From positions 1,178,001 to 1,242,000 of the forward strand of contig CP113940.1 in NCBI GenBank assembly GCA_029392475.1: DNA of 64,000 nt, in the 5' to 3' direction. This DNA comes from Streptococcaceae bacterium ESL0687. GTDB lineage: Bacteria > Bacillota > Bacilli > Lactobacillales > Streptococcaceae. Shown here piece after piece: positions 6,568 to 26,356 of the stretch. The translations under genes were made by a program, and so were the position numbers. The notes below the pieces were generated by a model. The model searched no databases, was not told the origin of the DNA, and saw only the letters and a program-made list of their open reading frames with translations. How positions within the stretch are numbered: the first letter of the stretch is position 1; the number at the start of each line of letters is the position of its first letter.

Positions 6568-6638
6568 CTTTTTTCTCCTGCTTATCTTTATCTTTTGCTC
6601 AAGTATAGCAAAAAAAGTTAACGCTTACAAAGATAAGA

Positions 6639-7397
6639 CTAGTAGCCAATTACAAGCTCCTCAATCTCAGAAAAAATTTTATCATCCACACTATTAATAT
6701 CTAGTAGATAAACCAGATTAAGGCGGGGATTAAAGATACCTAGTTTAGTAATATCTGCAAAATTTAAATTCCTTGAATGCTTACCCATCAAGTAATAAAT
6801 TGCTAGTTGGAGGGTATTTTTTGAAGTGGGTTTATTTTTAGAGACCTTAAAATCCCAAAGGGTATCTTTAGTTAAAAAATCACCGTCTCCATTAGTTATA
6901 GTTGAGGTATAGGCTCCGTCAAAGCGAAATCCCTCCTCAGTTACCGGTCCATATTTTTTTATAAAATCCAAAGAACGTTCAACCATTATCCTAATATTTG
7001 AAATAGTAGCTTCATCAGGCTTTATTTCTTCAATAGGAACAAAGCCTGCTTTTCCTGCCCGGTAAACAGTATCATATCCTGCAAGTTTACAGGCCGCAGC
7101 AATTGACTGATCATCAAGTCCCTTGATATTTTTTAAAATGGCCTGAGCCTTGTCCTCTTCTTCTGAACCTAGAATTCTTGCCCCATATAAGGAAATTTTA
7201 AAGGATTTCTCCGGATGGCCCGCATCCATAAAGCGTGTCAAATAATCAACAACTATCCCTACAAGACCTGGGGAAATATTTTCCTTATCAGAAAGCTCTT
7301 GACCACTTGAAAGTTCAAGCTGGATAAAGTTTTTTACCGGCAAGTAACCGCCACGGGGTTGCTTAACTTCTTGTAATCTTTGAGTAACTGTAACCAT
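6639..7397 (-). CDS. Hypothetical protein with PD-(D/E)XK nuclease-like core
   Basis: A 252-aa protein of unknown function. The C-terminal half shows the order expected of a PD-(D/E)XK nuclease fold of the RecB/AddB type: Asp171/Asp173 in GDGDFL, then WDFKVS with Asp182 and Lys184 after a short hairpin, then a QLAIYY motif (Gln197) on the following helix. The N-terminal half is helical and unassigned. I chose the ATG at 7397 because GGGAGGTTATTAAG lies directly before it; the longer frame has a hydrophobic non-family leader. The promoter TTGTAA-17-TATACT lies upstream (about 7424-7452). It stands alone between the thrS terminator and the 57-aa gene. The nuclease assignment rests on motif order only. 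Confidence 0.7.
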   Translation of the reverse strand: MVTVTQRLQEVKQPRGGYLPVKNFIQLELSSGQELSDKENISPGLVGIVVDYLTRFMDAGHPEKSFKISLYGARILGSEEEDKAQAILKNIKGLDDQSIAAACKLAGYDTVYRAGKAGFVPIEEIKPDEATISNIRIMVERSLDFIKKYGPVTEEGFRFDGAYTSTITNGDGDFLTKDTLWDFKVSKNKPTSKNTLQLAIYYLMGKHSRNLNFADITKLGIFNPRLNLVYLLDINSVDDKIFSEIEELVIGY

Positions 7398-7453
7398 CTT
7401 AATAACCTCCCATAAATTTATATTTTCAGTATAGTATATAATTTTTATAATTA

Positions 7454-7497
7454 CAAAAAACATCCCTCACTATTGTATTAGTGAAGGATGTTATTTT
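7454..7497 (-). terminator. thrS terminator
   Basis: Long stem AACATCCTTCACTA/TAGTGAGGGATGTT on the reverse strand followed by a T run, immediately after the thrS stop. Confidence 0.9.
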
Positions 7498-9444
7498 TTA
7501 AGCTTCTACTGGATCTTTACGAGAGTAGTTTGCGATGTCTGAAGTGATTGCGTCAACGAAGTCGTCAAGTTTAAGGACTTGTGTTTCCTTGCTTCCATAA
7601 CGGCGGACGTTTACTGTACCTTCTTCTTGTTCCTTGTCACCAACTACGATTTGGTAAGGGATTTTAGAAGTTTGGCTGGCACGAATTTTATAACCCATTT
7701 TTTCGTTACGTTCGTCTACTTCAAGGCGGATTCCTTTAGCCTTAAGGGCGTTTGCCACGTCCCAAGCGTAGTCTGCGTGGACTTCGTTTGAAACTGGGAT
7801 GATTGTTGCTTGAACAGGAGCTAGCCAAGTTGGGAAGGCACCCTTGTAAACTTCTGTTAGGTAGGCAACGAAACGTTCCATAGTTGAAACGATACCACGG
7901 TGGATAACGACTGGACGGTGGTTTTCTCCGTCAGCTCCCACGTATTCCAGTTCAAAGCGTTCAGGAAGAAGGAAGTCAAGCTGGATAGTTGAAAGAGTTT
8001 CTTCGTTTCCAAGAGCTGTCTTAACCTGTACGTCAAGTTTTGGTCCGTAGAAGGCTGCTTCTCCTTCAGCTTCAAAATAGTCAAGTTCAAGCTCATCCAT
8101 GGCTGCCTTAAGCATGGCTTGGGCATTTTCCCACATTGCATCATCGTCAAAGTACTTGTGAGTGTCGTTAGGGTCACGGTAGCTTAGACGGAAGCGGTAG
8201 TCGTCAATTCCGAAGTCTTTGTATACGGCAAGCATCAGCTCAAGAGTACGTTTGAATTCGTCCTTAATTTGATCAGGGCGGACAAATGTGTGTCCATCAT
8301 TCAGGGTCATTTCACGTACACGTTGTAGACCTGAAAGTGCTCCAGATTTTTCATAACGGTGCATCATTCCAAGTTCCGCCACACGGATTGGCAGTTCACG
8401 GTATGAACGGATGTGGTTTTTATAAACCATCATGTGGTGTGGGCAGTTCATTGGACGAAGAACAAGCTCTTCACCGTCACCCATGTCCATTGGTGGGAAC
8501 ATGTCTTCCTTATAGTGATCCCAGTGTCCTGAAGTCTTGTAAAGGCCGACATCAGCCATGATTGGAGTGTAGACGTGTTCGTATCCTAAGCTCAGTTCTT
8601 TATCAGTGATGTAGCGCTCGATTGTACGGCGGATTGTAGCCCCGTTTGGTAGCCAGAATGGAAGCCCACTACCAACCTCTTGGCTGACCATGAATAGGTC
8701 TAGTTCACGACCTAGTTTACGGTGGTCACGTTCTTTAGCCTCTTCGCGCATTTTCAGGTATTTCTTCATGTCCTTTTTATCGAACCAGGCTGTACCATAA
8801 ACACGTTGCATCATGTTGTTGTCAGAGTTTCCGCGCCAGTAAGCTCCAGCCACGTTAAGTAGGTCGAAGACTTGGATGCGGCCTGTTGATGGGACGTGAG
8901 GTCCACGGCAAAGGTCAGTGAATTCCCCTTGAGAATAGACAGTTAGGCCTTCACCAGCGTGCTCTTCGATAAGTTCAAGCTTGTAAGGATCGTCTGCAAA
9001 GATTTCACGGGCCTCATCTTTTGTAACCTCGCGGCGGATGGCAGGGTAGTTTTCCTTGACGATTTTCATCATCTCTTCTTGGATACGTGGAAGGTCTTCG
9101 TTGGTGATTTGTCCTGACTCATTGTCAGTATCGTAGTAGAATCCGTCTTGGATGGCAGGTCCTACACCAAGTTTAATGTTAGGGAAAAGACGACGGGCTG
9201 CTTGGGCAAAAAGGTGGGCAGCAGAGTGACGCAGTAAAGGTAGTGCGTCCTCGTGATCTGGTGTCACGATTTCAAGGCTTCCATCTTCAGTGATTGGGCG
9301 ATCCCAGTCGATTAGTTGGCCATTTAGTTTACCAGCAAGTGTCTTTTTAGCAAGTGACTTGCTGATTGATTCAGCGATTTCATAAGTAGTCACACCTGAT
9401 TGGTATTCGCGAGTAGCGCCATCAGGAAAAGTAATTTTTACCAT
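7498..9444 (-). CDS. thrS: Threonyl-tRNA synthetase
   Basis: A 648-aa class II aminoacyl-tRNA synthetase that charges tRNA-Thr. The domains run in order: TGS domain (residues 1-60), the editing/second additional domain with [10 protein letters not shown] (near 73) and the later [16 protein letters not shown] segment, the class II catalytic core with motif 2 ([13 protein letters not shown]) and the zinc-binding Cys/His residues, motif 3 ([13 protein letters not shown]) and an anticodon-binding C-terminus. GGAGATATAC precedes the ATG. It is the second gene of a unit led by a YkgJ-like gene and preceded by a T-box; no second T-box lies in the 57-bp gap between them, so both should respond to uncharged tRNA-Thr. 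Confidence 0.97.
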
Positions 9445-9501
9445 GTATATCTCCTTTTATTTTTATCTTGTTCTCTAGTTTTAAGACATCACGGTCGTAT
9501 G

Positions 9502-10011
9502 CTATTTCATGGCCTCACTTAATTTTTCAACAAAGAGGTAGGCTGCTGGGCAGTACTCTGTGTTTTTGAGGGTTAAGTGATTGATTTGATAAATCCTTTT
9601 GCGGTCAGTATGAGGAAACTCACGGCAGGCCTTGGGGCGGACACTGTAAATGTCGCAGAGATTATCACAACCCAGGAAAGGACAGGGCATGGACTGGAAG
9701 ACCTTGTCGCCATCTTCGTCAACCCGTAGGTAACTAGCCTCAAAGTCAGCTAGTTTCATGCGCTCTTTTTTAGCCACTCTTTCAATATCAGCCTCGGTCC
9801 ATAAGGGACCAAGCCCCTTGCAGCAGTTGGCACATTTGGTACAGTCGACTTCTGCAAAAACCTCATCATGAATGGCCTTGGTTAATTTGTCCAGATTCTT
9901 TGGTTTTTTCTTTTTAAGGTTGGCTAGGAATTTTTCATGGGTCTTTCTTTTTTGAAGGGCCAAATCCCTGTAGTAGTCTACATCTATTCTATTGTCAATT
10001 TCTTTAATCAT
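9502..10011 (-). CDS. YkgJ family cysteine cluster protein
   Basis: A 169-aa protein with the cysteine layout of the YkgJ (CxxCxxCC) family: CTKCANCC in the middle, then CPFLGCDNLC, RPKACREFPH and a final Cys in NTEYCPAA. The family is thought to bind a metal or an iron-sulfur cluster; no reaction is established. The start at 10011 (MIKEIDNRID) was chosen because the longer frame begins inside the T-box terminator stem; its binding site (GAAAGATG) is weak. It lies between the T-box leader and thrS, 57 bp before thrS, so it is expected to be induced on threonine shortage. The reason for that link is unknown. Confidence 0.8.
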   Translation of the reverse strand: MIKEIDNRIDVDYYRDLALQKRKTHEKFLANLKKKKPKNLDKLTKAIHDEVFAEVDCTKCANCCKGLGPLWTEADIERVAKKERMKLADFEASYLRVDEDGDKVFQSMPCPFLGCDNLCDIYSVRPKACREFPHTDRKRIYQINHLTLKNTEYCPAAYLFVEKLSEAMK

Positions 10012-10046
10012 CTTTACATCTTTCTCATGGCAAGTGGATTTTTGAG

Positions 10047-10261
10047 TATAAAAAAAGCCCAAGCCATGCTTAGGACGTCGTAACGTGGTACCACCTAGGT
10101 TTGGGTAAAACTACCCCTCTACTAGTCTTAACGCGACCCACGCACAAGGTTTCCCAAGTGTTTTTCTAAAGTAGTCTTGAACAAGTCCCTTTGATAGGCT
10201 TCCACCGTCCCCATCTCGCTTTAAAAGCTTAAATGCACAAGTTGTCTTTAAATCTATTATA
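10047..10261 (-). promoter_or_regulatory. T-box leader (threonine) with promoter
   Basis: The reverse strand carries the T-box core AGGTGGTACCACG at 10084-10096, followed by the attenuator ending TTGGGCTTTTTTT (about 10047-10057). Stem I features lie upstream (GCGAG near 10218, GACGGTGGAAG apical region). The best specifier candidate is ACT (Thr) in CAAGACTACTTT near 10166-10177, which agrees with thrS downstream but was assigned by eye. The promoter is TTGAAA (10278-10283), 16-bp spacer, TATAAT (10256-10261). Uncharged tRNA-Thr should stabilise the antiterminator. Confidence 0.88.
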
Positions 10262-10301
10262 TCCCTTTGAGTAAATTTTTCAAGTCATAAAATTCAATAA
10301 A

Positions 10302-10325
10302 AAAAACGACCTGAGGTCGTTTTTA
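10302..10325 (-). terminator. mntH terminator
   Basis: AAAACGACC/GGTCGTTTT with a 3-base loop, overlapping the mntH stop codon and followed by T on the reverse strand. Confidence 0.85.
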
Positions 10326-11663
10326 AAACATGCTGATAATCAGTTGGACATTTAAAACAGTAAGAACTGTTACTGCTATCCAAGCTAGAATAGAAAGAAT
10401 TCTCTTATTTTTAAATCTTTCACCCATGATTTTTTTGCTACTTGTAAAGTAGACTAAAGGAATCATTGAGGCTGGAAGGGCAATACTTAGAAAGACCTGA
10501 CTTCCAACCATAAGATCATCAAGGGCTCCTTCATTTCCATTATAGTAAATGGCACATGCAAGGACTGGAAGAACTGACAGGGCACGGGTTATAAGTCTTC
10601 TTGACCAGGCAGGAATTTTCAAGTGAATGAATCCTTCCATAACAACCTGTCCTGTAAGGGTTCCAGTAATTGTTGAATTTTGTCCACTGGCAAGAAGGGC
10701 TACTGCAAAAAGGGTTGAGAGAAGAGGACTGGCTACATCTCCTGCAATATTTTTATCTTTAAGGGCGTCATAAAGGGCTGTAAAGGTTCCAAGGTCTTCC
10801 TTGGTTCCATAAAACATGGCAGCCCCTAAAATTAGAAGCAGGCAGTTGATAATAAAGGCCACTGACAGCTGGATATTTGAATCCCAGGTTGAGAAACGAA
10901 CTGCACGCGCCACTTTTTCCTCATCCTGCCTGTCATACTTCCTACTTTGAGTTATTGATGAATGCAGGTAAAGATTATGAGGCATAACTGTTGCCCCTAC
11001 AATCCCAAGGGCCATTGTGAGCTCACCGCGGTTAAGGATTTGTTTTTTAGGAACGAATCCTTCTACAATTGAGGCAAAACTTGGATTAGAAAGAGCAACC
11101 TCGTACCCAAAGACCACCAAAATAACTCCAATTAGACTGATTACAATTGCTTCAATTTTCCTAAAGCCAAGTCTCATCATGAACAATAGAAGAAAGACAT
11201 CAAAGACTGTTAAAATTACCCCAAAGACAATCGGAATGTCAAAGAGAAGGTTAAGGGCTATGGCGCCTCCTATAACTTCTGCAATATCCGTTGCCATAAT
11301 TGCAAGTTCTGTTACAATCCAGAGAATAAATCCAACTCTTTTACTGGTATATTTTCTTGTCGCCTGGGCCAAATCAAGCCCTGTTACAATCCCAAGTTTT
11401 GCTGCCATATATTGAAGCAACATGGCAATAAGGCTTGAAAGCATGATAACTGATAGAAGAAGGTAACCATATTGAGACCCCCCGCCAATTGATGTAATCC
11501 AGTTCCCTGGATCCATATATCCAACAGCAACCAAAGCTCCTGGACCTGAAAAGGCCATGAGATTCTTCCAAAAACTATTGTCCTTTGGAACATCAACCGT
11601 TCCGTTGATCTCTTCAAGACTTGGACCATTAGCATACCTGGTAAAACTATTTTCTTTTTTCAC
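10323..11663 (-). CDS. mntH: Nramp manganese/divalent metal transporter MntH
   Basis: A 446-aa proton-coupled Mn(II)/Fe(II) importer of the Nramp family, with about 11 membrane helices. The metal-binding DPGNW motif of TM1 and the [10 protein letters not shown] motif of TM6 are both present, and the length is normal. The start codon is GTG at 11663 with AAGGATTAG upstream, giving a 20-30-residue cytosolic N-terminus. It is a single gene between two terminators. A strong promoter (TTTACA-17-TATAAT) is flanked upstream by a palindrome resembling MntR/DtxR-family boxes, so repression by manganese or iron is likely. Lactic acid bacteria use Mn for peroxide and superoxide defence, which fits with dpr nearby. 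Confidence 0.94.
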
Positions 11664-11740
11664 AACTACTAATCCTTTCGATTATTATTTTTTAAAACAT
11701 TACAATTTAAAATAAAGCTCCTACTTTTCAATACTAGTTC

Positions 11741-11792
11741 ATTATAGAAGATTAAATTATAGATGTAAAGAAAAAATTAAGGCTAACCTAAA
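11741..11792 (-). promoter_or_regulatory. mntH promoter and putative metal-regulator operator
   Basis: Reverse strand: -35 TTTACA (11764-11769), 17-bp spacer, -10 TATAAT (11741-11746). Just upstream of the -35, at 11777-11792, the sequence TTTAGGTTAGCCTTAA is an imperfect dyad close to the DtxR/MntR-type consensus (TTAGGTTAGCCTAA). No mntR gene is in the window. Confidence 0.65.
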
Positions 11793-11801
11793 CTTTTTTG
11801 T

Positions 11802-11826
11802 AAAAAAATTAGACCCAAGGTCTAAT
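11802..11826 (-). terminator. ylbG terminator
   Basis: ATTAGACC/GGTCTAAT stem with a 3-base loop, then a T run on the reverse strand, 7 bp after the ylbG stop. Confidence 0.88.
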
Positions 11827-11832
11827 CTTATT

Positions 11833-12084
11833 CTAATATTCTTCTGAAAAATTCATTTCAAGGTCTGGGAGAAAGCTTTCTTCGACTCCCTTAACAAAAT
11901 GAAGTCCCGCAAGTTCAGCCTTTATTTGCTCATAATCCTCTTCATTGACATAAATCTTTACATAACGCAGCCTTTTTGAGGTATAAACAAAATCACCATA
12001 TTTTTTAAGTCTTCTTACATGCTTGTAACTGTTATAGTAGACATATAAGGCCCTTCTTTTTTGGAGTTCAAATTTAACTTCCAC
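11833..12084 (-). CDS. ylbG: YlbG family protein (DUF2129)
   Basis: An 83-aa protein matching the small cytosolic YlbG family (DUF2129), function unknown, with the typical opening MEVKFELQKRRALYVYYN. The start is a GTG at 12084 behind a very purine-rich binding site (GAAGGGGGGAATCTT); the longer ATG-started frame runs inside ylbF and is not supported. It overlaps the ylbF 3' end by 11 bp, so the two are translationally coupled. The ylbF-ylbG order is conserved in Bacillus, where YlbF (RicF) works with YaaT and YmcA as a maturation factor for RNase Y. Confidence 0.85.
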   Translation of the reverse strand: MEVKFELQKRRALYVYYNSYKHVRRLKKYGDFVYTSKRLRYVKIYVNEEDYEQIKAELAGLHFVKGVEESFLPDLEMNFSEEY

Positions 12085-12502
12085 AAGATTCCCCCCTTCC
12101 GTGATGACCCTTTTTTGAAAACGGTAGTCCCTCATCAATACTTATATCTTCTGAGATAGTAGCTGCTATATCCCTAGTTAAATCAGCTAGAAGGCCCTGC
12201 AAATCATTTTCTGCAAGCCTTAATTTATAAACATGCTCATTGAGGTTTACCTCCCTCTGGAGCCCTCTTATCTCCCTTTGAAGCTCTTTTAACTCCGGCC
12301 GGTAGGGTAAATAAGCCTCATTTTCTGCTAAAAGTTGATTTTTTTCTAGTAGGTCTTTAAGCTGTTCTTGAAGAAAAATATCTGCTTCAAAATCCGCCTG
12401 GGCCTTCTTGTAATTATTCACCTGATCAAAGGATAAAAAGCTGGCAACTATTTTATCAATTACATCATCTATTTTTGCTAAACTTTCATTTACAATTAAC
12501 AT
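12074..12502 (-). CDS. ylbF: YlbF/YmcA (RicF-like) family regulator
   Basis: A 142-aa protein of the DUF964 (YlbF/YmcA) family. It is almost wholly helical and hydrophilic, with a heptad-like core (roughly residues 25-110), and ends in a Gly/His/Cys tail (KKGHHGRGESCGS). In B. subtilis the related YlbF forms a complex with YmcA and YaaT that binds iron-sulfur clusters and directs RNase Y cleavage. The C-terminal Cys here is a single residue and cannot be called a ligand. It is first in a two-gene unit with ylbG; the binding site before the ATG is weak. Confidence 0.8.
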   Translation of the reverse strand: MLIVNESLAKIDDVIDKIVASFLSFDQVNNYKKAQADFEADIFLQEQLKDLLEKNQLLAENEAYLPYRPELKELQREIRGLQREVNLNEHVYKLRLAENDLQGLLADLTRDIAATISEDISIDEGLPFSKKGHHGRGESCGS

Positions 12503-12628
12503 GCCCTTATTATAGCAAATATTTTAATTTGGCAAAGCTTTAACCCTATAACTTTCTCTAGTCCCTACTATAAAAAAGGCTATTTCTATGTTAAAATACT
12601 AATTAATGAAATTTTGAAAGAGGTTACC

Positions 12629-13291
12629 ATGGAAGAATATTTTGATAAACTATCTGCTAAAAATAAGGATTACTTAATCACTGTTTCAAGGCAGCTCAGT
12701 GAAAACGGAAAAAGTAAGGATCAAATTGATGAGATTTTTAAAGAGCATATAGATGAAATCATAAGCCATCAGGAAAGAGGGATTCCTGCCCGTAACTTCC
12801 TAGGTACTCCAAGTGCTTTTGCTGGTCAGTTCATCGAAAAAAATGACCAAGGAGCAAAGACTGAAAGTAAGACTGTAAACACTAACAAATACCTCATGTG
12901 GCTTGATAACTTCCTGTTACTTCTTGGAGTTCTTGCTGCTGTTAATGGTGGAGTTGGGCTTTTCAGTAAAAACCCTCAGACCTACGGAATAATAACCCTA
13001 TTAATTATGAGTGCAGGTGCAGGTCTTATCATGAGCCTCATGTACAATAATTTTTCTAAAAAGGATGAGCAAAAATCAGGTGGTCGTTTTAAATCATTTG
13101 CCTTTATGACCCTTGCTATGTTTGCCTGGATTGCAGTTTTTGTTCTTGCTTCCCTTCTGCCGCAAGCAATCAACCCAACCCCATCACCACTTGTAACCCT
13201 AATAATTGGTCTAGTGGCCCTAGTAGTCCGCTACTTTGTTAAAAAACACTATAACATTCAAAGCTCAATGACTAACTACCAGTCTAAATAA
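12629..13291 (+). CDS. DUF1129 family membrane protein
   Basis: A 220-aa protein. An N-terminal soluble helical domain of about 90 residues (MEEYFDKLSAKNKDYLITVS, then a GTPSAFAGQF turn) is followed by four hydrophobic segments (about residues 93-110, 120-137, 155-175 and 185-202). This is the layout of DUF1129, common in lactococci and streptococci and without known function. ATG 12629 is preferred over the upstream TTG because AGAGGTTACC lies directly before it. The N-terminal domain resembles the cytosolic domains of DUF1700/DUF1129 proteins often found beside PadR regulators, but no PadR gene is adjacent. It is monocistronic with a strong terminator shared with the convergent tetR. Confidence 0.75.
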   Translation: MEEYFDKLSAKNKDYLITVSRQLSENGKSKDQIDEIFKEHIDEIISHQERGIPARNFLGTPSAFAGQFIEKNDQGAKTESKTVNTNKYLMWLDNFLLLLGVLAAVNGGVGLFSKNPQTYGIITLLIMSAGAGLIMSLMYNNFSKKDEQKSGGRFKSFAFMTLAMFAWIAVFVLASLLPQAINPTPSPLVTLIIGLVALVVRYFVKKHYNIQSSMTNYQSK

Positions 13292-13294
13292 AAA

Positions 13295-13327
13295 GAAAAA
13301 GATAATCTAAATTAGATTATCTTTTTT
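13295..13327. terminator. Bidirectional terminator between DUF1129 gene and tetR
   Basis: AAAAAGATAATCTAA/TTAGATTATCTTTTT perfect stem with A and T runs on both sides. Confidence 0.9.
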
Positions 13328-13332
13328 ATTTT

Positions 13333-13902
13333 TTATGAGTTATTGATGGCTGTAAAAAAACCATTTAAAAACACATCAATAACAAGATCAGCAAGTTCTT
13401 CAGCACTTAGTTTATTATCCTCTTGGGTAAAGGACTTAAATGTTTGAATTAAAATATCAACAGAGTATAATCCGAGTAAGGAAGTTTTTTCATTTTTTTC
13501 AACTTCCAAGTGTCTATTGGAGAAGAAACTTTGATTGAGTTCCTTCTTTAATTTTTCAGAAAAACCTGACCCTGCATTATCACTTAAGAGGCAATTGATT
13601 TCTTTAGCGTAAATTTTAAGATGGTTTAGATGCTCAATAACATTTTCTCTTATAAAGTCTGTGTCATCATAGTTAAAGTCAGCTGGCCTTTTACCCTTCA
13701 TACCAGATAAAATTTCATCTTCCATTTCATCAATTAGGTTGTATTTATCTTCGTAGTACCTATAAAAGCTACTTCTATTTAATTCAGCCTGATTTACAAT
13801 GTCATTTATGGTTATCTGGTCGAATCTTTTATCAGCCATTAGACTTATCAGGGCAGATTTTATTTTCTTTCTGGTTGTTTCAGTTTTTTTGGTATATTCC
13901 AT
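13333..13902 (-). CDS. TetR family transcriptional regulator
   Basis: A 189-aa repressor-type protein. The N-terminal HTH (residues about 10-55) shows the TetR pattern TRKKIKSALISLMADKRFDQITINDIVNQAELNRSSFYRYY, split here as it reads through. The C-terminal ligand domain is poorly conserved, as usual. ATG 13902 was chosen because GGAGGGATT precedes it. It is divergent from a DHA2-type multidrug exporter with a 24-bp palindrome in the 152-bp spacer, the standard design of a drug-sensing repressor controlling itself and an efflux pump. The effector cannot be read from the sequence. Confidence 0.88.
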   Translation of the reverse strand: MEYTKKTETTRKKIKSALISLMADKRFDQITINDIVNQAELNRSSFYRYYEDKYNLIDEMEDEILSGMKGKRPADFNYDDTDFIRENVIEHLNHLKIYAKEINCLLSDNAGSGFSEKLKKELNQSFFSNRHLEVEKNEKTSLLGLYSVDILIQTFKSFTQEDNKLSAEELADLVIDVFLNGFFTAINNS

Positions 13903-13940
13903 AATCCCTCCAACCTCCACATTTTAGCACAAATTTATAT

Positions 13941-13964
13941 AATATGTCTTATTTAAGACATATT
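13941..13964. promoter_or_regulatory. TetR-type operator palindrome
   Basis: Perfect inverted repeat: AATATGTCTTA (13941-13951), TT, TAAGACATATT (13954-13964), in the spacer between the divergent tetR and exporter genes. It lies where it could cover the tetR promoter. Confidence 0.8.
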
Positions 13965-14054
13965 GATGATTTTTGAACTAGAAAATAACTTGTAAGAGGC
14001 CTATAATTTAAAAAGTTTTATTAAGTAATTTTTAAGAAAGGATTTACAGATCAA

Positions 14055-15569
14055 ATGAATGAAACTAACAAAAATTATGACATTCATGGAAAAGAATATA
14101 ACCGCTACGGCGTTCTCTTCCTGATATTGATTGCGACTTTTGCGGGGGCCCTTATGCAGACCTCACTTGGTACTGCTATACCTACCCTAATGAAGGCTTT
14201 TGATATCGACTTAAATACTGCCCAACAGGCAACAACCTGGTTCCTCCTTGCTAATGGAATCATGGTTCCATTATCGGCCTTTCTGGCTACTAAGGTATCG
14301 ACAAAATGGCTCCATATCTTTGCCTATGCTACCTTATTAATTGGGATTTTAGCAACTGCTCTAACGCCTGAGAATAGTTCATCTTGGTGGATCTTTATCA
14401 TCGGACGTGTCCTTGCTGCGATTGCAGTTGGTATTATGATGCCCCTCATGCAAATTGTTATATTAAACATGTTTGCTCCTAAAGAACGCGCACTTGCCAT
14501 GGGGCTTAGTGGGCTTGTAGTTGGTATGGCACCAGCCATTGGGCCAACTCTATCTGGATGGATTCTTGAAAAAGATCATATCATTTTCGGTTTAACAATT
14601 TCTAATTCTTGGAGAACTATCTTCGTTATCCCTGCAATTGTAATTGGTATCGCCCTTGTTCTTGCACCATTCTTGATGAAAGACATCATCCATACTAAAA
14701 ATATTAAACTGGACTACCCGTCTCTTATCCTATCAGTTGTTGGTTTCGGTGCCTTCCTTTGGGGATTCACAAACGTTGCCTCACATGGTTGGAGCGACTT
14801 CGCACGCGTTATCCTTCCAATTGCAAGTGGTGTCCTACTTCTCGTAATTTTTGCATTTAGACAACTTAAACTACCTGAACCTTTCCTTGATATTAAGGTC
14901 TTCAAGGTTAAAGAATTTACAATTCCAACTATTGGATTAATCCTTTCAACCATGGCCATGTTCGGAGTTGAGATGATGCTTCCAACTTATATGCAAAATA
15001 TACATGGTTTATCACCTCTAAATTCAGGTCTTGCCCTTCTACCAGGTGCCCTTATGATTGGTCTAATGTCTCCAGTAAATGGTATCCTTTATAATAAGGT
15101 TGGAGTTAAGAAGATGGCCTTCCTTGGTTTCATCATCTTAGGACTTGGTACCCTACCATTTGTCTTCCTAACTGAAGCTACTCCAGTTAGCCTGATTGTT
15201 GTCTTATATGGAATTAGGATGTTTGCTGTTGCCATGCTTATGATGCCTCTTACAACATCTGCTATGGCAGCTCTACCAGTTGAAAAAGCAACCCACGGTA
15301 CTGCAGCTAACAATACTTTAAGACAGATTGCTTCATCAGTTGTTGTTGCCCTTCTAACTTCAATCACTCAAAACATTATCAATACTAATACACCAGCATC
15401 TTCACTTAAGGAAGCAAATCCTATGGAGTATGCAGATAAAATGCTTATTGCTTCTATGGACGGTTTCCGTGTAGCCTTTGCTGTAGGTTTAAGTTTTGCG
15501 GTTATTGGACTAATCTTTGCCTTCTTCCTAAAAGGAAATAAAAATACAGATAGTGAGGGAGAAAAATAA
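14055..15569 (+). CDS. DHA2 family drug:H+ antiporter (MFS, 14 TM)
   Basis: A 504-aa major facilitator of the DHA2/EmrB-QacA group with about 14 hydrophobic segments. Family motifs are visible: TTWFLLANGIMVPLSAFLATKVSTKW (motif A-like loop after TM2), LAAIAVGIMMPLMQ, and the motif C-like GLVVGMAPAIGPTLSGW in TM5. Such pumps extrude lipophilic drugs or bile salts using the proton gradient; the substrate cannot be inferred. The AAAGGA site is rather far (about 13 bases) from the ATG. The next gene begins directly after the stop codon, so the pair is translationally coupled. Regulation by the adjacent TetR through the palindrome at 13941-13964 is likely. Confidence 0.9.
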   Translation: MNETNKNYDIHGKEYNRYGVLFLILIATFAGALMQTSLGTAIPTLMKAFDIDLNTAQQATTWFLLANGIMVPLSAFLATKVSTKWLHIFAYATLLIGILATALTPENSSSWWIFIIGRVLAAIAVGIMMPLMQIVILNMFAPKERALAMGLSGLVVGMAPAIGPTLSGWILEKDHIIFGLTISNSWRTIFVIPAIVIGIALVLAPFLMKDIIHTKNIKLDYPSLILSVVGFGAFLWGFTNVASHGWSDFARVILPIASGVLLLVIFAFRQLKLPEPFLDIKVFKVKEFTIPTIGLILSTMAMFGVEMMLPTYMQNIHGLSPLNSGLALLPGALMIGLMSPVNGILYNKVGVKKMAFLGFIILGLGTLPFVFLTEATPVSLIVVLYGIRMFAVAMLMMPLTTSAMAALPVEKATHGTAANNTLRQIASSVVVALLTSITQNIINTNTPASSLKEANPMEYADKMLIASMDGFRVAFAVGLSFAVIGLIFAFFLKGNKNTDSEGEK

Positions 15570-20216: not shown

Positions 20217-20558
20217 ATGCAAAAAATCAATCCTAAAGAATTAGAAATCCTAGACATCCTTTGGAACAAAGACATCCCAATGACTTCAAAAGACATCCTT
20301 GAAGCTGAGCCAGTTCTTGTTATGAGTACTATCCAAAGCACTCTTAAAAAACTTCTTAAAAAGGAACTTGTTGTAGTTGATGGAATCACTTACTCAGGTA
20401 CTGTACTTACTCGTACTTACGTTCCAACTATCTCTCAAGAAGAATTTGTTCTTCGCCAATACAAAGGACTTGATGCTACTAAACTTGTATCACTTGTTCT
20501 TGAAAATGTTAGCGACCGCGCTGCTAAAACTGCAGAAATTAAAGAAATCATTGGTTAA
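20217..20558 (+). CDS. BlaI/MecI/CopY family transcriptional regulator (orphan)
   Basis: A 113-aa regulator. The N-terminal winged helix (residues 1-75) matches the BlaI/MecI/CopY family: NPKELEILDILWNKDIPMTSKDIL, then STIQSTLKKLLKKELV. The C-terminal 40 residues form the dimerisation helices. The CopY metal motif (CxCx4CxC) is absent, so copper sensing is unlikely. No blaR1-type protease, beta-lactamase or copper pump lies nearby, so its targets are elsewhere or are itself. The codon use is unusually biased, like that of abundant proteins, which is odd for a repressor. A single gene with a strong terminator. Confidence 0.88.
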   Translation: MQKINPKELEILDILWNKDIPMTSKDILEAEPVLVMSTIQSTLKKLLKKELVVVDGITYSGTVLTRTYVPTISQEEFVLRQYKGLDATKLVSLVLENVSDRAAKTAEIKEIIG

Positions 20559-22845: not shown

Positions 22846-23370
22846 TTATTCCCTAGATTTAAGCTCTTTAAGCCTATTCATCAAAGCCTCTTTATCCGCT
22901 GAATTAGAAATAATAATAGGATTTTTTAGATTATTTTCGGCCAAGGCTTGCGACAATTTTTTATCATAATTAAAAGAAATCTTCAAGAATTCCAGGTATT
23001 CCAGGTCAAATTTTTCCCTGAAATTTTCAGGCATATCAGGCCTGGTAGCCTTTGATTTTCGAAATCGGAAACTCCTCCTGATAATTCTAAACATTCTCTT
23101 ATACCTTGGACAGGTTAGAACAATTACCAAATCAGCATCTTTTAGTCTGAGGTCCAAGGTTTTCAAATAGTTGCCATCAATCAACCAGGAATCATGCTCT
23201 TTTATAAAGGCTTCCTGCTGGCTGTGAAAAAAGAGCTCAGCTTCTTTTGAATAATCAGTCTTATGCCAAATACTATCCAAATAAAGGGTTGGTATTTTTA
23301 AGCTCTCTTCTAACTCACGGGCTAGAGTTGACTTACCGCTTCCAGGTGGACCCAATAAAACTAATTTCAT
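22846..23370 (-). CDS. P-loop NTPase, FlaR/DNA-topology-modulation family
   Basis: A 174-aa P-loop protein related to adenylate kinases. Walker A is GPPGSGKST (residues 7-15), DSIWH follows near 32-36, and the lid-like region is rich in Arg (RMFRIIRRSFRFRKSKATR). Such proteins are annotated as FlaR or DNA topology modulation protein, but that function was never firmly shown; a nucleotide kinase is as likely. AAGGAGACG precedes the ATG. It stands between rsmD and the large helicase gene, 44 bp downstream of nothing obvious, with a short spacer on each side; co-transcription with the helicase is not possible as that gene ends just upstream of it on the same strand with a 44-bp gap, so read-through from the helicase is conceivable. 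Confidence 0.75.
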   Translation of the reverse strand: MKLVLLGPPGSGKSTLARELEESLKIPTLYLDSIWHKTDYSKEAELFFHSQQEAFIKEHDSWLIDGNYLKTLDLRLKDADLVIVLTCPRYKRMFRIIRRSFRFRKSKATRPDMPENFREKFDLEYLEFLKISFNYDKKLSQALAENNLKNPIIISNSADKEALMNRLKELKSRE

Positions 23371-23414: not shown

Positions 23415-26273
23415 TTAACTAGTAAGGTATCTAAAGAGGTCATCATCAACAGGGCTTATAAATTCAAAATCAATTTCGACTGCTTTTTCAAACTGCCCAT
23501 TTGATCTTGGAATTTGGCACTCATGAACTGTCTGCAAAAGCGGCCTTGCCTGACCAACAAAATAAGAACTAGTTTCCTTTTCAGCATCGGATTTTTTAAT
23601 GAAAACGTAAATTTCCAGACCATTAGCCTCATAGTTTAAAAGGGCCTCAATTTCAGGACTTTTAAGACTCCTTTTGGCCTTGGAAAACCAATTTATCCTA
23701 TTTTTTCCGGTAAATCTATTCTCATAAAGAGTCTGAGTACTTGATAATTCATCAACTCTTGACATGGTGATAAAGATCATCATTTTTTTCTTATCTGGCC
23801 GAATTTTGTAACCTGCAATGGCTAAATCCACCTCCTGGTGGTCAAAATTAAGAAAACGGGTAACATCCCTCTTATCGTATTTCTGAGCGGGAGTGAAGGC
23901 CTTCTTATTGTCAAAATCCTTATTTTTATAAAGGGCAAGGGTTAAATAATCCTCAAAAGACTCCCTGAACAGTTGATTTTTCAAGGCACTTACAAGAAAA
24001 ATGCTTGGACTGATAATTCCTGCTAAGTCATTATAATCTATCAAAGGAATAGAATAGGTTTTGGCATAGTTAGAAACCCAGAAGGACATATCTAGAACCT
24101 TAATTAGAGTTCTAAAAGTTTCATCATCCATCAGGACCTGTTCATGCTCGCAAACCTCTAAAAATTCTTCTTTTCCTAACTCATCTTTCCTTAGAAATGA
24201 TTGTAAGAGAAGGAGCTCACCTTTTGACTTTCCAGCTAAAAGCTCCCGGCCCATAAAACGGAGGATACTTGTTTCATCAAAACTTAATTGAGGAATAGAT
24301 GGTTCAAGCTTGGCTAAAAACCCTGGATAAGTGTCATACCTAGTTGCTAGAGTATAGGTACTGGCCTCACCCAAGTATTCAAAATCCATAAGTTTTGGAA
24401 TACGACCAACCCTATTTTTGAGATTGAGGTAGGCATCCCGCAAGAATTTCATGCTGTCTAGCTTGGCACTATTAATAGACTCATAAATTCTTTTTCTTGC
24501 AACCTCTTCGAAATTTATGGTCGAAAGGCCTGGAGTGTAGTCACTTGAAAACAAGTCATACCTCAAACTATCCTTACTGCTAGATTTATGACCTGATAAG
24601 GCCATAGGAATCAAATAATTATTTTTATAATTTCCAATAAAATCAAGTACAACTACATAATCCTTAGTTGGCGAAAGTCTAAGTCCTCGCCCCAGTTGCT
24701 GGATAAAGATAATACTTGATTCAGTATTTCTTAGCATGACCACCTGATTGACCTTTGGAATATCAATTCCCTCATTGAAGATATCCCTGCTAATAATATA
24801 GTCAAGCTCTCCCTTTTCTAGGGCCTCAACCGTTTTAACCCTCTTACTAGTACTATCACTAGCTGAAAGGGCGCAAGTCCTGTAACCGCGCATATTTAAA
24901 AGCTTACTTAAGCTCTCACCTTCCTTGACTGATGAACAGAAAATTAATCCACAAGTCTGTTCTGCTGAACTGCCATAATAATCTAATTTTGCAGTAATAT
25001 GGTCAATTCTTTCCTCATTTAGAAGATCCTTCAAGGGACTCTTCTCATCAATCACCTGTCCGTCACAAGTATAGTCTGAGACTCCGTAATAATGAAAGGG
25101 TGTTAAAAGTCCCTGGTCCAAGGCATCTTCCAGGCGAATTTCATGGGCAATATTATAGTCAAAAAGCTCAAAAATATTGGAATCATCATTTCTTTCAGGG
25201 GTTGCTGTCATTCCTAGAAGAAAGTCTGGTGTAAAATAATCAAGAACCTTTAAGTAGGAATCAGATCCTGCCCTATGGGCTTCATCAATAATAATATAGT
25301 CAAAACGATCTCTAGTAAAATCAAGAAGATTTTCCCCCTTTGATAAGGACTGAACGGTCGCAAATAGATAGGGTTTATTAACATCTTTTGTCTGAGAAGA
25401 GTAAAATCCGTAATCCGAAGGTCGGCCGCCTACAAGCTTTTGAATGGTCGCCATAGCATCCCGTAAAATCTGTTCCCTATGAACCACAAAAAGGAAGCGC
25501 CGGGGTTTATATTTATCTAAATCAAAGGCAGAAAGGTAGGTCTTACCCGTTCCTGTTGCAGCTATTAAAAGAGCTTTTTTTAGGCCCTTGGAACGTGAAT
25601 CTTCAAGACCTTTTAAGGCCCTAAGCTGCATCACATTAGGGCTGATTTTAACTTCACTATCAGGTAATTCAGCGGGTAATTTCAAAGTCTTTTCTAGGGG
25701 CTTGTAATTTTTTTGATAGCTATCAATAAAGTCTTGATCTAAGTCAATTGACTCTTGCCAGAGATCTTCAAAAGACTGGTCCATCTGCCTAGCAAAATCA
25801 CTGCTCGCATCTTTTTTGATCAGAGTGTTCCACTCTAAATTAGTCTTTAAGGCTGTCTCAGTAAGATTGGATGAGCCAGTCAAATAGCTTCTATAATTGC
25901 AATTGCCTTTTACGAAGCTGTAGCTCTTCAGATGAAAACCGTCCTGGAGATTTATGCGTACATGCAAATTAGGTATTTTTTTAAGTTCCCTAAAAACTTG
26001 TGGGCTATTAAAGGCCAAGTAGGTTGATGTTACGAGGCGACCATGGATTCCAGCATCATTTAAGTCTGAAAGGGCACTTTTTATCATGGCAAGGCCAGAC
26101 ATGGTCACAAAGGCAACAGCAATAGTAAAACTTTGACAGTCTCTTAATTCAGCCAGCAGACTGGCAAGAACTGTCTCGTGTGTATTTTTTTTATTAGTAA
26201 TAAGGGCAGGTTCAAATTCAGCTCTTTCAGCTGACTGAGAAAAACTAGTCCCCAAATTCAAGTCATTGTCCAT
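23415..26273 (-). CDS. HKD-nuclease / superfamily II helicase / DUF3427 protein
   Basis: A 952-aa multidomain enzyme. Residues about 30-180 form a phospholipase-D-like (HKD) nuclease domain with His114-x-Lys116, GSSN at 133-136 and Glu147. A superfamily II helicase follows: Walker A GTGKT near 241-245, DEAH at 330-333, MTATP, and the motif VI-like QQLGRGLRLS. The C-terminal region (about 780-940) matches DUF3427. Such fusions act on nucleic acids and occur in both housekeeping and defence settings; no reaction is established. Start 26273 (MDNDLNLG) lies 7 nt after TAAGAT preceded by TGT, with no usable ribosome binding site, so a leaderless transcript is possible. No modification gene or partner is adjacent. 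Confidence 0.88.
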   Translation of the reverse strand: MDNDLNLGTSFSQSAERAEFEPALITNKKNTHETVLASLLAELRDCQSFTIAVAFVTMSGLAMIKSALSDLNDAGIHGRLVTSTYLAFNSPQVFRELKKIPNLHVRINLQDGFHLKSYSFVKGNCNYRSYLTGSSNLTETALKTNLEWNTLIKKDASSDFARQMDQSFEDLWQESIDLDQDFIDSYQKNYKPLEKTLKLPAELPDSEVKISPNVMQLRALKGLEDSRSKGLKKALLIAATGTGKTYLSAFDLDKYKPRRFLFVVHREQILRDAMATIQKLVGGRPSDYGFYSSQTKDVNKPYLFATVQSLSKGENLLDFTRDRFDYIIIDEAHRAGSDSYLKVLDYFTPDFLLGMTATPERNDDSNIFELFDYNIAHEIRLEDALDQGLLTPFHYYGVSDYTCDGQVIDEKSPLKDLLNEERIDHITAKLDYYGSSAEQTCGLIFCSSVKEGESLSKLLNMRGYRTCALSASDSTSKRVKTVEALEKGELDYIISRDIFNEGIDIPKVNQVVMLRNTESSIIFIQQLGRGLRLSPTKDYVVVLDFIGNYKNNYLIPMALSGHKSSSKDSLRYDLFSSDYTPGLSTINFEEVARKRIYESINSAKLDSMKFLRDAYLNLKNRVGRIPKLMDFEYLGEASTYTLATRYDTYPGFLAKLEPSIPQLSFDETSILRFMGRELLAGKSKGELLLLQSFLRKDELGKEEFLEVCEHEQVLMDDETFRTLIKVLDMSFWVSNYAKTYSIPLIDYNDLAGIISPSIFLVSALKNQLFRESFEDYLTLALYKNKDFDNKKAFTPAQKYDKRDVTRFLNFDHQEVDLAIAGYKIRPDKKKMMIFITMSRVDELSSTQTLYENRFTGKNRINWFSKAKRSLKSPEIEALLNYEANGLEIYVFIKKSDAEKETSSYFVGQARPLLQTVHECQIPRSNGQFEKAVEIDFEFISPVDDDLFRYLTS

Positions 26274-26330
26274 CTCTACTATCTTAACAAGAAGGAGCAA
26301 AAAAATCCACAAATAAGAAATAAAATAAGA

Positions 26331-26356
26331 AAAAACCCTGGATTTCCAGGGTTTTT
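26331..26356. terminator. valS terminator
   Basis: AAAAACCCTGGA/TCCAGGGTTTTT with a TT loop, seven bases past the valS stop. Confidence 0.93.

What the first reader, a model, noticed from the sequence alone, without database searches (positions are those of the whole stretch)
23415..26273. Large HKD-nuclease + SF2 helicase + DUF3427 protein, standing alone
One chain joins a phospholipase-D-type nuclease, a complete DEAH helicase and DUF3427. The order resembles enzymes of restriction or anti-phage systems, yet no methyltransferase or partner gene is adjacent and the neighbours are housekeeping. It could be a single-gene defence system or an undescribed DNA-repair enzyme. Its start also lacks a Shine-Dalgarno and follows TGTTAAGAT by seven bases.
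Basis: partly seen in the sequence, partly recalled or inferred. Interest (0 to 1): 0.6.

Follow-up and report, generated by a model that had tools for sequence, protein, structure and literature searches.

The report
Restriction enzyme for methylated DNA
The gene encodes a relative of the staphylococcal enzyme SauUSI, which destroys incoming DNA carrying methylated cytosines, so it is an ordinary single-gene defence; what is unusual is that this genus lacks the small nucleotide-cleaning gene that nearly always sits beside it in other bacteria.

Summary
In detail: one 952-aa chain with a PLD nuclease, an SF2 DEAH motor and DUF3427. It is not undescribed. It matches the solved type IV restriction enzyme SauUSI over its whole length (724 bits, 41% identity) and PADLOC's mREase_IV model (737 bits). 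The C-terminal domain is predicted to fold as an SRA domain, best match SauUSI (Z 17.8). Type IV enzymes need no methyltransferase, so standing alone among housekeeping genes is expected. The gene lies at the same place in 4/4 Floricoccus genomes, is under purifying selection (dN/dS 0.09), and is patchy in the family (31/295 genomes).

Two things are unusual. First, SauUSI-like enzymes with an SRA domain are nearly always next to a Nudix hydrolase resembling NudG (a 5-methyl-dCTPase). Adjacency is near-universal in Bacilli, and the Nudix is otherwise almost absent from Streptococcaceae. All Floricoccus lack it. Second, the pocket Asp proposed to read the flipped cytosine is Asn in all four Floricoccus. 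The genome also carries a Sau3AI-type system (GATm5C), which SauUSI's known site (Sm5CNGS) would not hit.

Verdict: new member of a known kind. The Nudix pairing was found on the way; I found only one passing mention of it in the literature.

The parts
23415..26273 (-). [quoted passage not shown]
25719..26273 (-). N-terminal PLD-type nuclease domain (residues 1-185)
   Evidence: Pfam PLDc_2 51-172; 40% identical to SauUSI here
25926..25934 (-). HxK catalytic motif, H114 and K116 (SauUSI H119 and K121)
   Evidence: invariant in 110 of 112 rows, 2 gaps
25833..25868 (-). second catalytic block, N136 of GSSN to E147
   Evidence: invariant in 110 of 112 rows, 2 gaps; catalytic role inferred from other PLD nucleases
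24474..25646 (-). SF2 helicase-like motor (residues 210-600)
   Evidence: ResIII and Helicase_C; 53% identical to SauUSI
25539..25553 (-). Walker A GTGKT (241-245)
25275..25286 (-). Walker B DEAH (330-333)
24678..24701 (-). motif VI QQLGRGLR (525-532), arginine finger R532 (SauUSI R544)
   Evidence: R invariant in 112 of 112 rows
23889..24473 (-). helical coupler (residues 601-795)
   Evidence: by alignment with the SauUSI coupler described in PMC7913695; 27% identical
23418..23888 (-). target recognition domain, SRA fold (residues 796-952)
   Evidence: AlphaFold2 pLDDT 86 (residues 790-952); VIA Z 17.8 to SauUSI, about 10-11 to SUVH6, SUVH5, AspBHI, MspJI
23718..23720 (-). N852, at the position of SauUSI D858 (proposed cytosine contact); Asn in all four Floricoccus, Asp or Glu in nearly all relatives
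26281..26289 (-). TGTTAAGAT, extended -10-like element 7 nt before the ATG (probable leaderless transcript)
   Evidence: sequence and its recurrence in the other Floricoccus; inferred function
26331..26356 (.). terminator-like hairpin after valS, U-rich on both strands

Best explanation
The protein is a SauUSI-family type IV restriction endonuclease that protects the cell from incoming DNA carrying modified cytosine. By analogy with SauUSI, the C-terminal SRA domain flips a 5-methyl- or 5-hydroxymethyl-cytosine out of the helix; this switches on the SF2 motor, which translocates on DNA with ATP; and the N-terminal PLD nuclease dimer then makes double-strand breaks. Shown here: full-length homology and domain order, conserved nuclease and motor residues, the predicted SRA fold with most of the pocket kept, purifying selection, and no Nudix partner. 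Inferred: the activity, the target base, and the leaderless expression.
For: Full-length match to SauUSI (PDB 7clg) at 724 bits, 1.8e-216, and to PADLOC mREase_IV over 16-951 at 737 bits. Pfam order PLDc_2, ResIII, Helicase_C, DUF3427. H114, K116, N136, E147, T245 and R532 kept. Pocket residues Y822, F834, I835 and W862 kept. Predicted SRA fold, Z 17.8 to SauUSI and about 10 to 5mC-binding SRA domains. dN/dS 0.086 overall and 0.067 in the SRA domain. Same locus in 4/4 Floricoccus; patchy in the family, 31/295. The one resident m5C methyltransferase found (PF00145) lies beside a Sau3AI-family enzyme, so it should make GATm5C (target inferred from the family), which lies outside the SauUSI site Sm5CNGS (PMC7913695).
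Against: The Asp proposed to bond with the flipped cytosine is Asn here, and the inserting Met829 is Ala820 (a variable position). The Nudix partner that accompanies almost all relatives is absent. SRA identity to SauUSI is only 31%. No activity was measured.
Confidence: 0.85

Rival explanations
1. A SauUSI-type enzyme whose target base has shifted: with Asn instead of Asp in the pocket it may read a different modified pyrimidine or a narrower set, no longer endangers the cell through 5-methyl-dCTP, and so could lose the Nudix partner.
For: Asn at SauUSI D858 in all four Floricoccus against 139 Asp, 14 Glu and one other Asn among the rows read. The SRA domain has the lowest dN/dS, so this is not decay. 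Nudix absent genome-wide. Resident GATm5C methyltransferase tolerated.
Against: The one other Asn-bearing relative (L165) keeps its Nudix, and other relatives without a Nudix (L164, L168, L170) keep Asp, so the two traits do not covary in general. Asn can also pair with cytosine (chemistry, own knowledge). In UHRF1 the loss of the SRA Asp (D469G) was reported both as loss of function and as normal binding to hemimethylated DNA (PMC5012860). GATm5C lies outside the SauUSI motif anyway.
Confidence: 0.2
2. A housekeeping DNA-repair nuclease-helicase rather than defence.
For: Present at the same locus in 4/4 Floricoccus among housekeeping genes and under purifying selection.
Against: Absent from most Streptococcaceae (264/295). 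Close relatives occur on plasmids and in Streptococcus share the valS-adjacent spot with decayed copies or another restriction system. Closest solved relative is a restriction enzyme; repair-helicase matches cover the motor only.
Confidence: 0.04
3. A degenerate or crippled copy: without its Nudix partner and with changed residues, the enzyme no longer works.
For: Partner gene missing; V121 and N852 are unusual.
Against: Intact frame in 4/4 genomes across about 41% divergence, dN/dS 0.07-0.10 in every domain tested, catalytic residues kept.
Confidence: 0.05

Closest known systems
SauUSI (S. aureus; PDB 7clg; PMC7913695)
   Same: Length, PLD nuclease - SF2 motor - helical coupler - SRA order, HxK, motor motifs, pocket Y/F/I/W; single gene.
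   Different: 41% identity overall, 31% in the SRA domain; D858 is N852, M829 is A820, E126 is V121; no Nudix neighbour, whereas the staphylococcus-like loci with 58-60% identity to SauUSI have one.
PADLOC mREase_IV (PDLC03658)
   Same: 737 bits over residues 16-951.
   Different: None visible at profile level.
SRA-type modification-dependent enzymes MspJI, AspBHI, LpnPI and reader proteins SUVH5/6, UHRF1
   Same: SRA fold of the recognition domain (Z about 8-11).
   Different: Other nuclease folds (MspJI family) or not nucleases; no SF2 motor.
CglI / NgoAVII (PLD nuclease plus SF2 ATPase R-M systems)
   Same: Same kinds of nuclease and motor (PMC7913695).
   Different: Two subunits, B3 recognition domain, act on unmodified sites.
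NudG/Orf135 and Bacteroides Q5LBB1 (5-methyl-(d)CTP hydrolases), for the partner of relatives
   Same: Closest characterised solved relatives of the Nudix found beside SauUSI homologues; same APADxP block.
   Different: Absent from Floricoccus; substrate of the SauUSI-linked Nudix itself was not measured.

Membership tests
SauUSI-type type IV restriction enzyme | full-length homology to SauUSI | tested here: met
   724 bits, residues 13-951; PADLOC mREase_IV 737 bits
SauUSI-type type IV restriction enzyme | PLD nuclease active-site residues | tested here: met
   H114, K116, N136, E147 kept; acidic residue at SauUSI E126 is Val but this column is variable in the family
SauUSI-type type IV restriction enzyme | SF2 motor with Walker A, DEAH and motif VI | tested here: met
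SauUSI-type type IV restriction enzyme | SRA-fold target recognition domain | tested here: met
   model pLDDT 86; Z 17.8 to 7clg
SauUSI-type type IV restriction enzyme | 5mC pocket residues | tested here: inconclusive
   Y, F, I, W kept; the Asp contact is Asn
SauUSI-type type IV restriction enzyme | no cognate methyltransferase at the locus | tested here: met
   no methyltransferase of DNA beside the gene
SauUSI-type type IV restriction enzyme | own genome free of m5C in its target context | tested here: inconclusive
   only PF00145 methyltransferase found is in a Sau3AI-family system, expected GATm5C, outside Sm5CNGS; specificity of both enzymes inferred
SauUSI-type type IV restriction enzyme | ATP-dependent cleavage of 5mC/5hmC DNA | not testable with these tools
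   needs biochemistry
SauUSI-Nudix gene pair | adjacent NudG-like Nudix hydrolase | tested here: not met
   absent at the locus and genome-wide in 4/4 Floricoccus
RadD / Rad25-type repair helicase | homology beyond the motor | tested here: not met
   matches limited to about residues 211-555 and below the curated cut-off

The most novel reading that the evidence does not exclude
SauUSI-type enzymes normally work as a two-gene unit with a Nudix hydrolase that destroys 5-methyl- and 5-hydroxymethyl-dCTP, so that the base which triggers the nuclease is kept out of the cell's own DNA (or denied to phages that need it). Floricoccus is a natural exception in which the partner was lost and the reading pocket changed, possibly shifting what the nuclease recognises.
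Probability: 0.35. Interest if true: 0.65.

Novelty: new member of a known kind. Interest (0 to 1): 0.38.

Why it matters
The gene itself adds one more type IV barrier to DNA uptake, of use to anyone who wants to transform Floricoccus (use Dcm-negative DNA). Its missing partner drew attention to a near-universal pairing of SauUSI-like enzymes with a NudG-like Nudix. If that enzyme removes modified dCTP, it explains how a cell can carry a nuclease triggered by a base that could enter its own DNA from recycled nucleotides. The idea can be tested in laboratory strains.

Tried and rejected
DNA-repair reading: RadD and Rad25 similarity covers the motor only. Shared ancestry of the valS location with Streptococcus: the tree puts the Floricoccus enzymes with Lactococcus, Enterococcus and Carnobacterium, not with Streptococcus, so the shared spot looks like repeated use of one site. 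Nudix loss tied to Asp-to-Asn in general: not so, each occurs without the other. A hidden Nudix elsewhere in Floricoccus: best match only 31 bits over 68 residues. Full sigma-70 promoter: none. G003's own m5C methyltransferase resembles M.HhaI and has no named neighbour, so its target stayed unknown. Repeats around the gene: only short chance-level families and the terminator hairpin. Xu et al. 2011, the first SauUSI paper, is not in the library.

Full report
Observation. The ORF is real and intact: window 23415-26273, minus strand, 952 aa. Pfam gives PLDc_2, ResIII, Helicase_C and full-length DUF3427 in that order. The same block precedes the start in the three other Floricoccus genomes, so a leaderless transcript is likely, though unproven; the consensus scan found no complete promoter.

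What it is. The best solved relative is SauUSI of Staphylococcus aureus (PDB 7clg), matched end to end at 724 bits; identity is 41% overall, 53% in the motor and 31% in the SRA domain. PADLOC's type IV model covers 16-951 at 737 bits. Nuclease residues H114, K116, N136 and E147 and motor residues T245 and R532 are kept. The last 163 residues were modelled (pLDDT 86); the model matches SauUSI's recognition domain (Z 17.8) and then SRA domains that bind 5mC or 5hmC, such as SUVH6, SUVH5, AspBHI and MspJI, at Z about 10-11. SauUSI cuts DNA with Sm5CNGS sites using ATP-driven translocation and a PLD nuclease dimer (PMC7913695). Type IV enzymes have no methyltransferase, so the absence of one here is expected.

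Distribution. By the named records, the genus is Floricoccus. All four genomes have the gene between valS and a P-loop kinase - rsmD - coaD block. Within the family 31 of 295 genomes have it. dN/dS between this genome and its nearest relative is 0.086, and 0.067 in the SRA domain. The tree places the Floricoccus enzymes as one clade with Lactococcus, Enterococcus and Carnobacteriaceae. Many Streptococcus copies also sit beside valS but form a separate clade, so this looks like a re-used site.

The missing partner. Comparing neighbourhoods showed a ~130-aa Nudix gene next to the enzyme in 23 of 26 loci, the three exceptions being Floricoccus. In a scan of 103 loci (a few are duplicates) 95 had it adjacent and 2 nearby; of the six without it five rows are Floricoccus and one Oceanobacillus. 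In a class-wide sample 25 of 29 loci had it adjacent, and 19 of 20 more distant relatives had it close by. Across Streptococcaceae, 26 of the 27 non-Floricoccus genomes with the enzyme have the Nudix, and only two genomes have it alone (Fisher p 1e-33; genomes are related, so this p is optimistic). One of those two carries a decayed fragment of the enzyme, the other an m5C restriction system in the space between valS and the Nudix. In a phylum-wide sample 11 of 13 SRA-type enzymes have the Nudix adjacent, against 0 of 22 shorter relatives of ~800 aa; the six of these that were read end in an unrelated C-terminus. Two adjacent pairs on plasmids, one in Bacteroidota, show that the pair can be mobile.

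What the partner may do (inference). All 141 orthologues keep the Nudix box, and 140 have Asp at the position where MutT has Asn and NudG has Asp. Apart from 5x1x, annotated only as MutT, the closest solved relatives are a Bacteroides enzyme, 3gwy, and E. coli NudG. NudG hydrolyses 5-methyl-dCTP, and Bacteroides Q5LBB1 (very probably 3gwy) hydrolyses 5-methyl-(d)CTP and 5-hydroxymethyl-dCTP at about 5e6 per M per s (PMC5158307). These are the triphosphates of the two bases that SauUSI attacks. The likely role is to keep those bases out of the cell's own DNA, or to starve phages that use them. The pairing has been noted once, in a figure legend on Streptococcus (PMC7641849); I found no account of its extent or meaning in the held library, which is not the whole literature.

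Floricoccus as exception. No orthologue of the Nudix is present in any of the four genomes. They share one further oddity: Asn at SauUSI D858, the residue proposed to contact the flipped cytosine, where other relatives have Asp (139 rows) or Glu (14), with one other Asn. The two traits do not go together elsewhere, and in UHRF1 the importance of the corresponding Asp is disputed (PMC5012860), so a changed target is possible but not shown. The genome also carries a Sau3AI-family restriction gene next to an m5C methyltransferase, as do two of the other three Floricoccus. GATm5C is outside SauUSI's motif, so the two systems can coexist without any change of target.

Verdict. A confirmed observation, a known kind of enzyme, and an interpretation that was half right. 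The novelty lies in the comparative finding rather than in the gene itself.

Noticed in passing
relatives, for example L121, L125, L014, L207, L209 (Nudix genes beside SauUSI homologues): NudG-like Nudix hydrolase adjacent to SRA-type SauUSI homologues across Bacillota and on a Bacteroidota plasmid, but not beside the shorter relatives without an SRA domain.
   Followed up: yes
own genome C1:54565-57465 (L117:7554-10466): Sau3AI-family type II system with its m5C methyltransferase, next to rpsI/rplM; in G003 another R-M cassette with an HhaI-like methyltransferase occupies the same spot.
   Followed up: partly
L197 (G088) 7026-14970: Streptococcus genome in which an m5C methyltransferase system lies between valS and an orphan Nudix, as if it had replaced the SauUSI homologue.
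   Followed up: partly
L198 (G068) 6576-6994: Decayed remnants of SauUSI homologue and Nudix at the valS site, next to a CRISPR-Cas9 locus.
   Followed up: partly
window 22846-23370: P-loop kinase of the 'DNA topology modulation' type directly downstream of the enzyme in all four Floricoccus, duplicated in two; whether it is linked to the enzyme is unknown.
   Followed up: partly
window 20217-20558: BlaI-like regulator without the adjacent ~450-aa membrane protein (BlaR1-like by my reading) seen in the two other Floricoccus lineages (L119, L120).
   Followed up: no
window 26331-26356: Strong hairpin with U-runs on both strands after valS, conserved in the closest relative.
   Followed up: no
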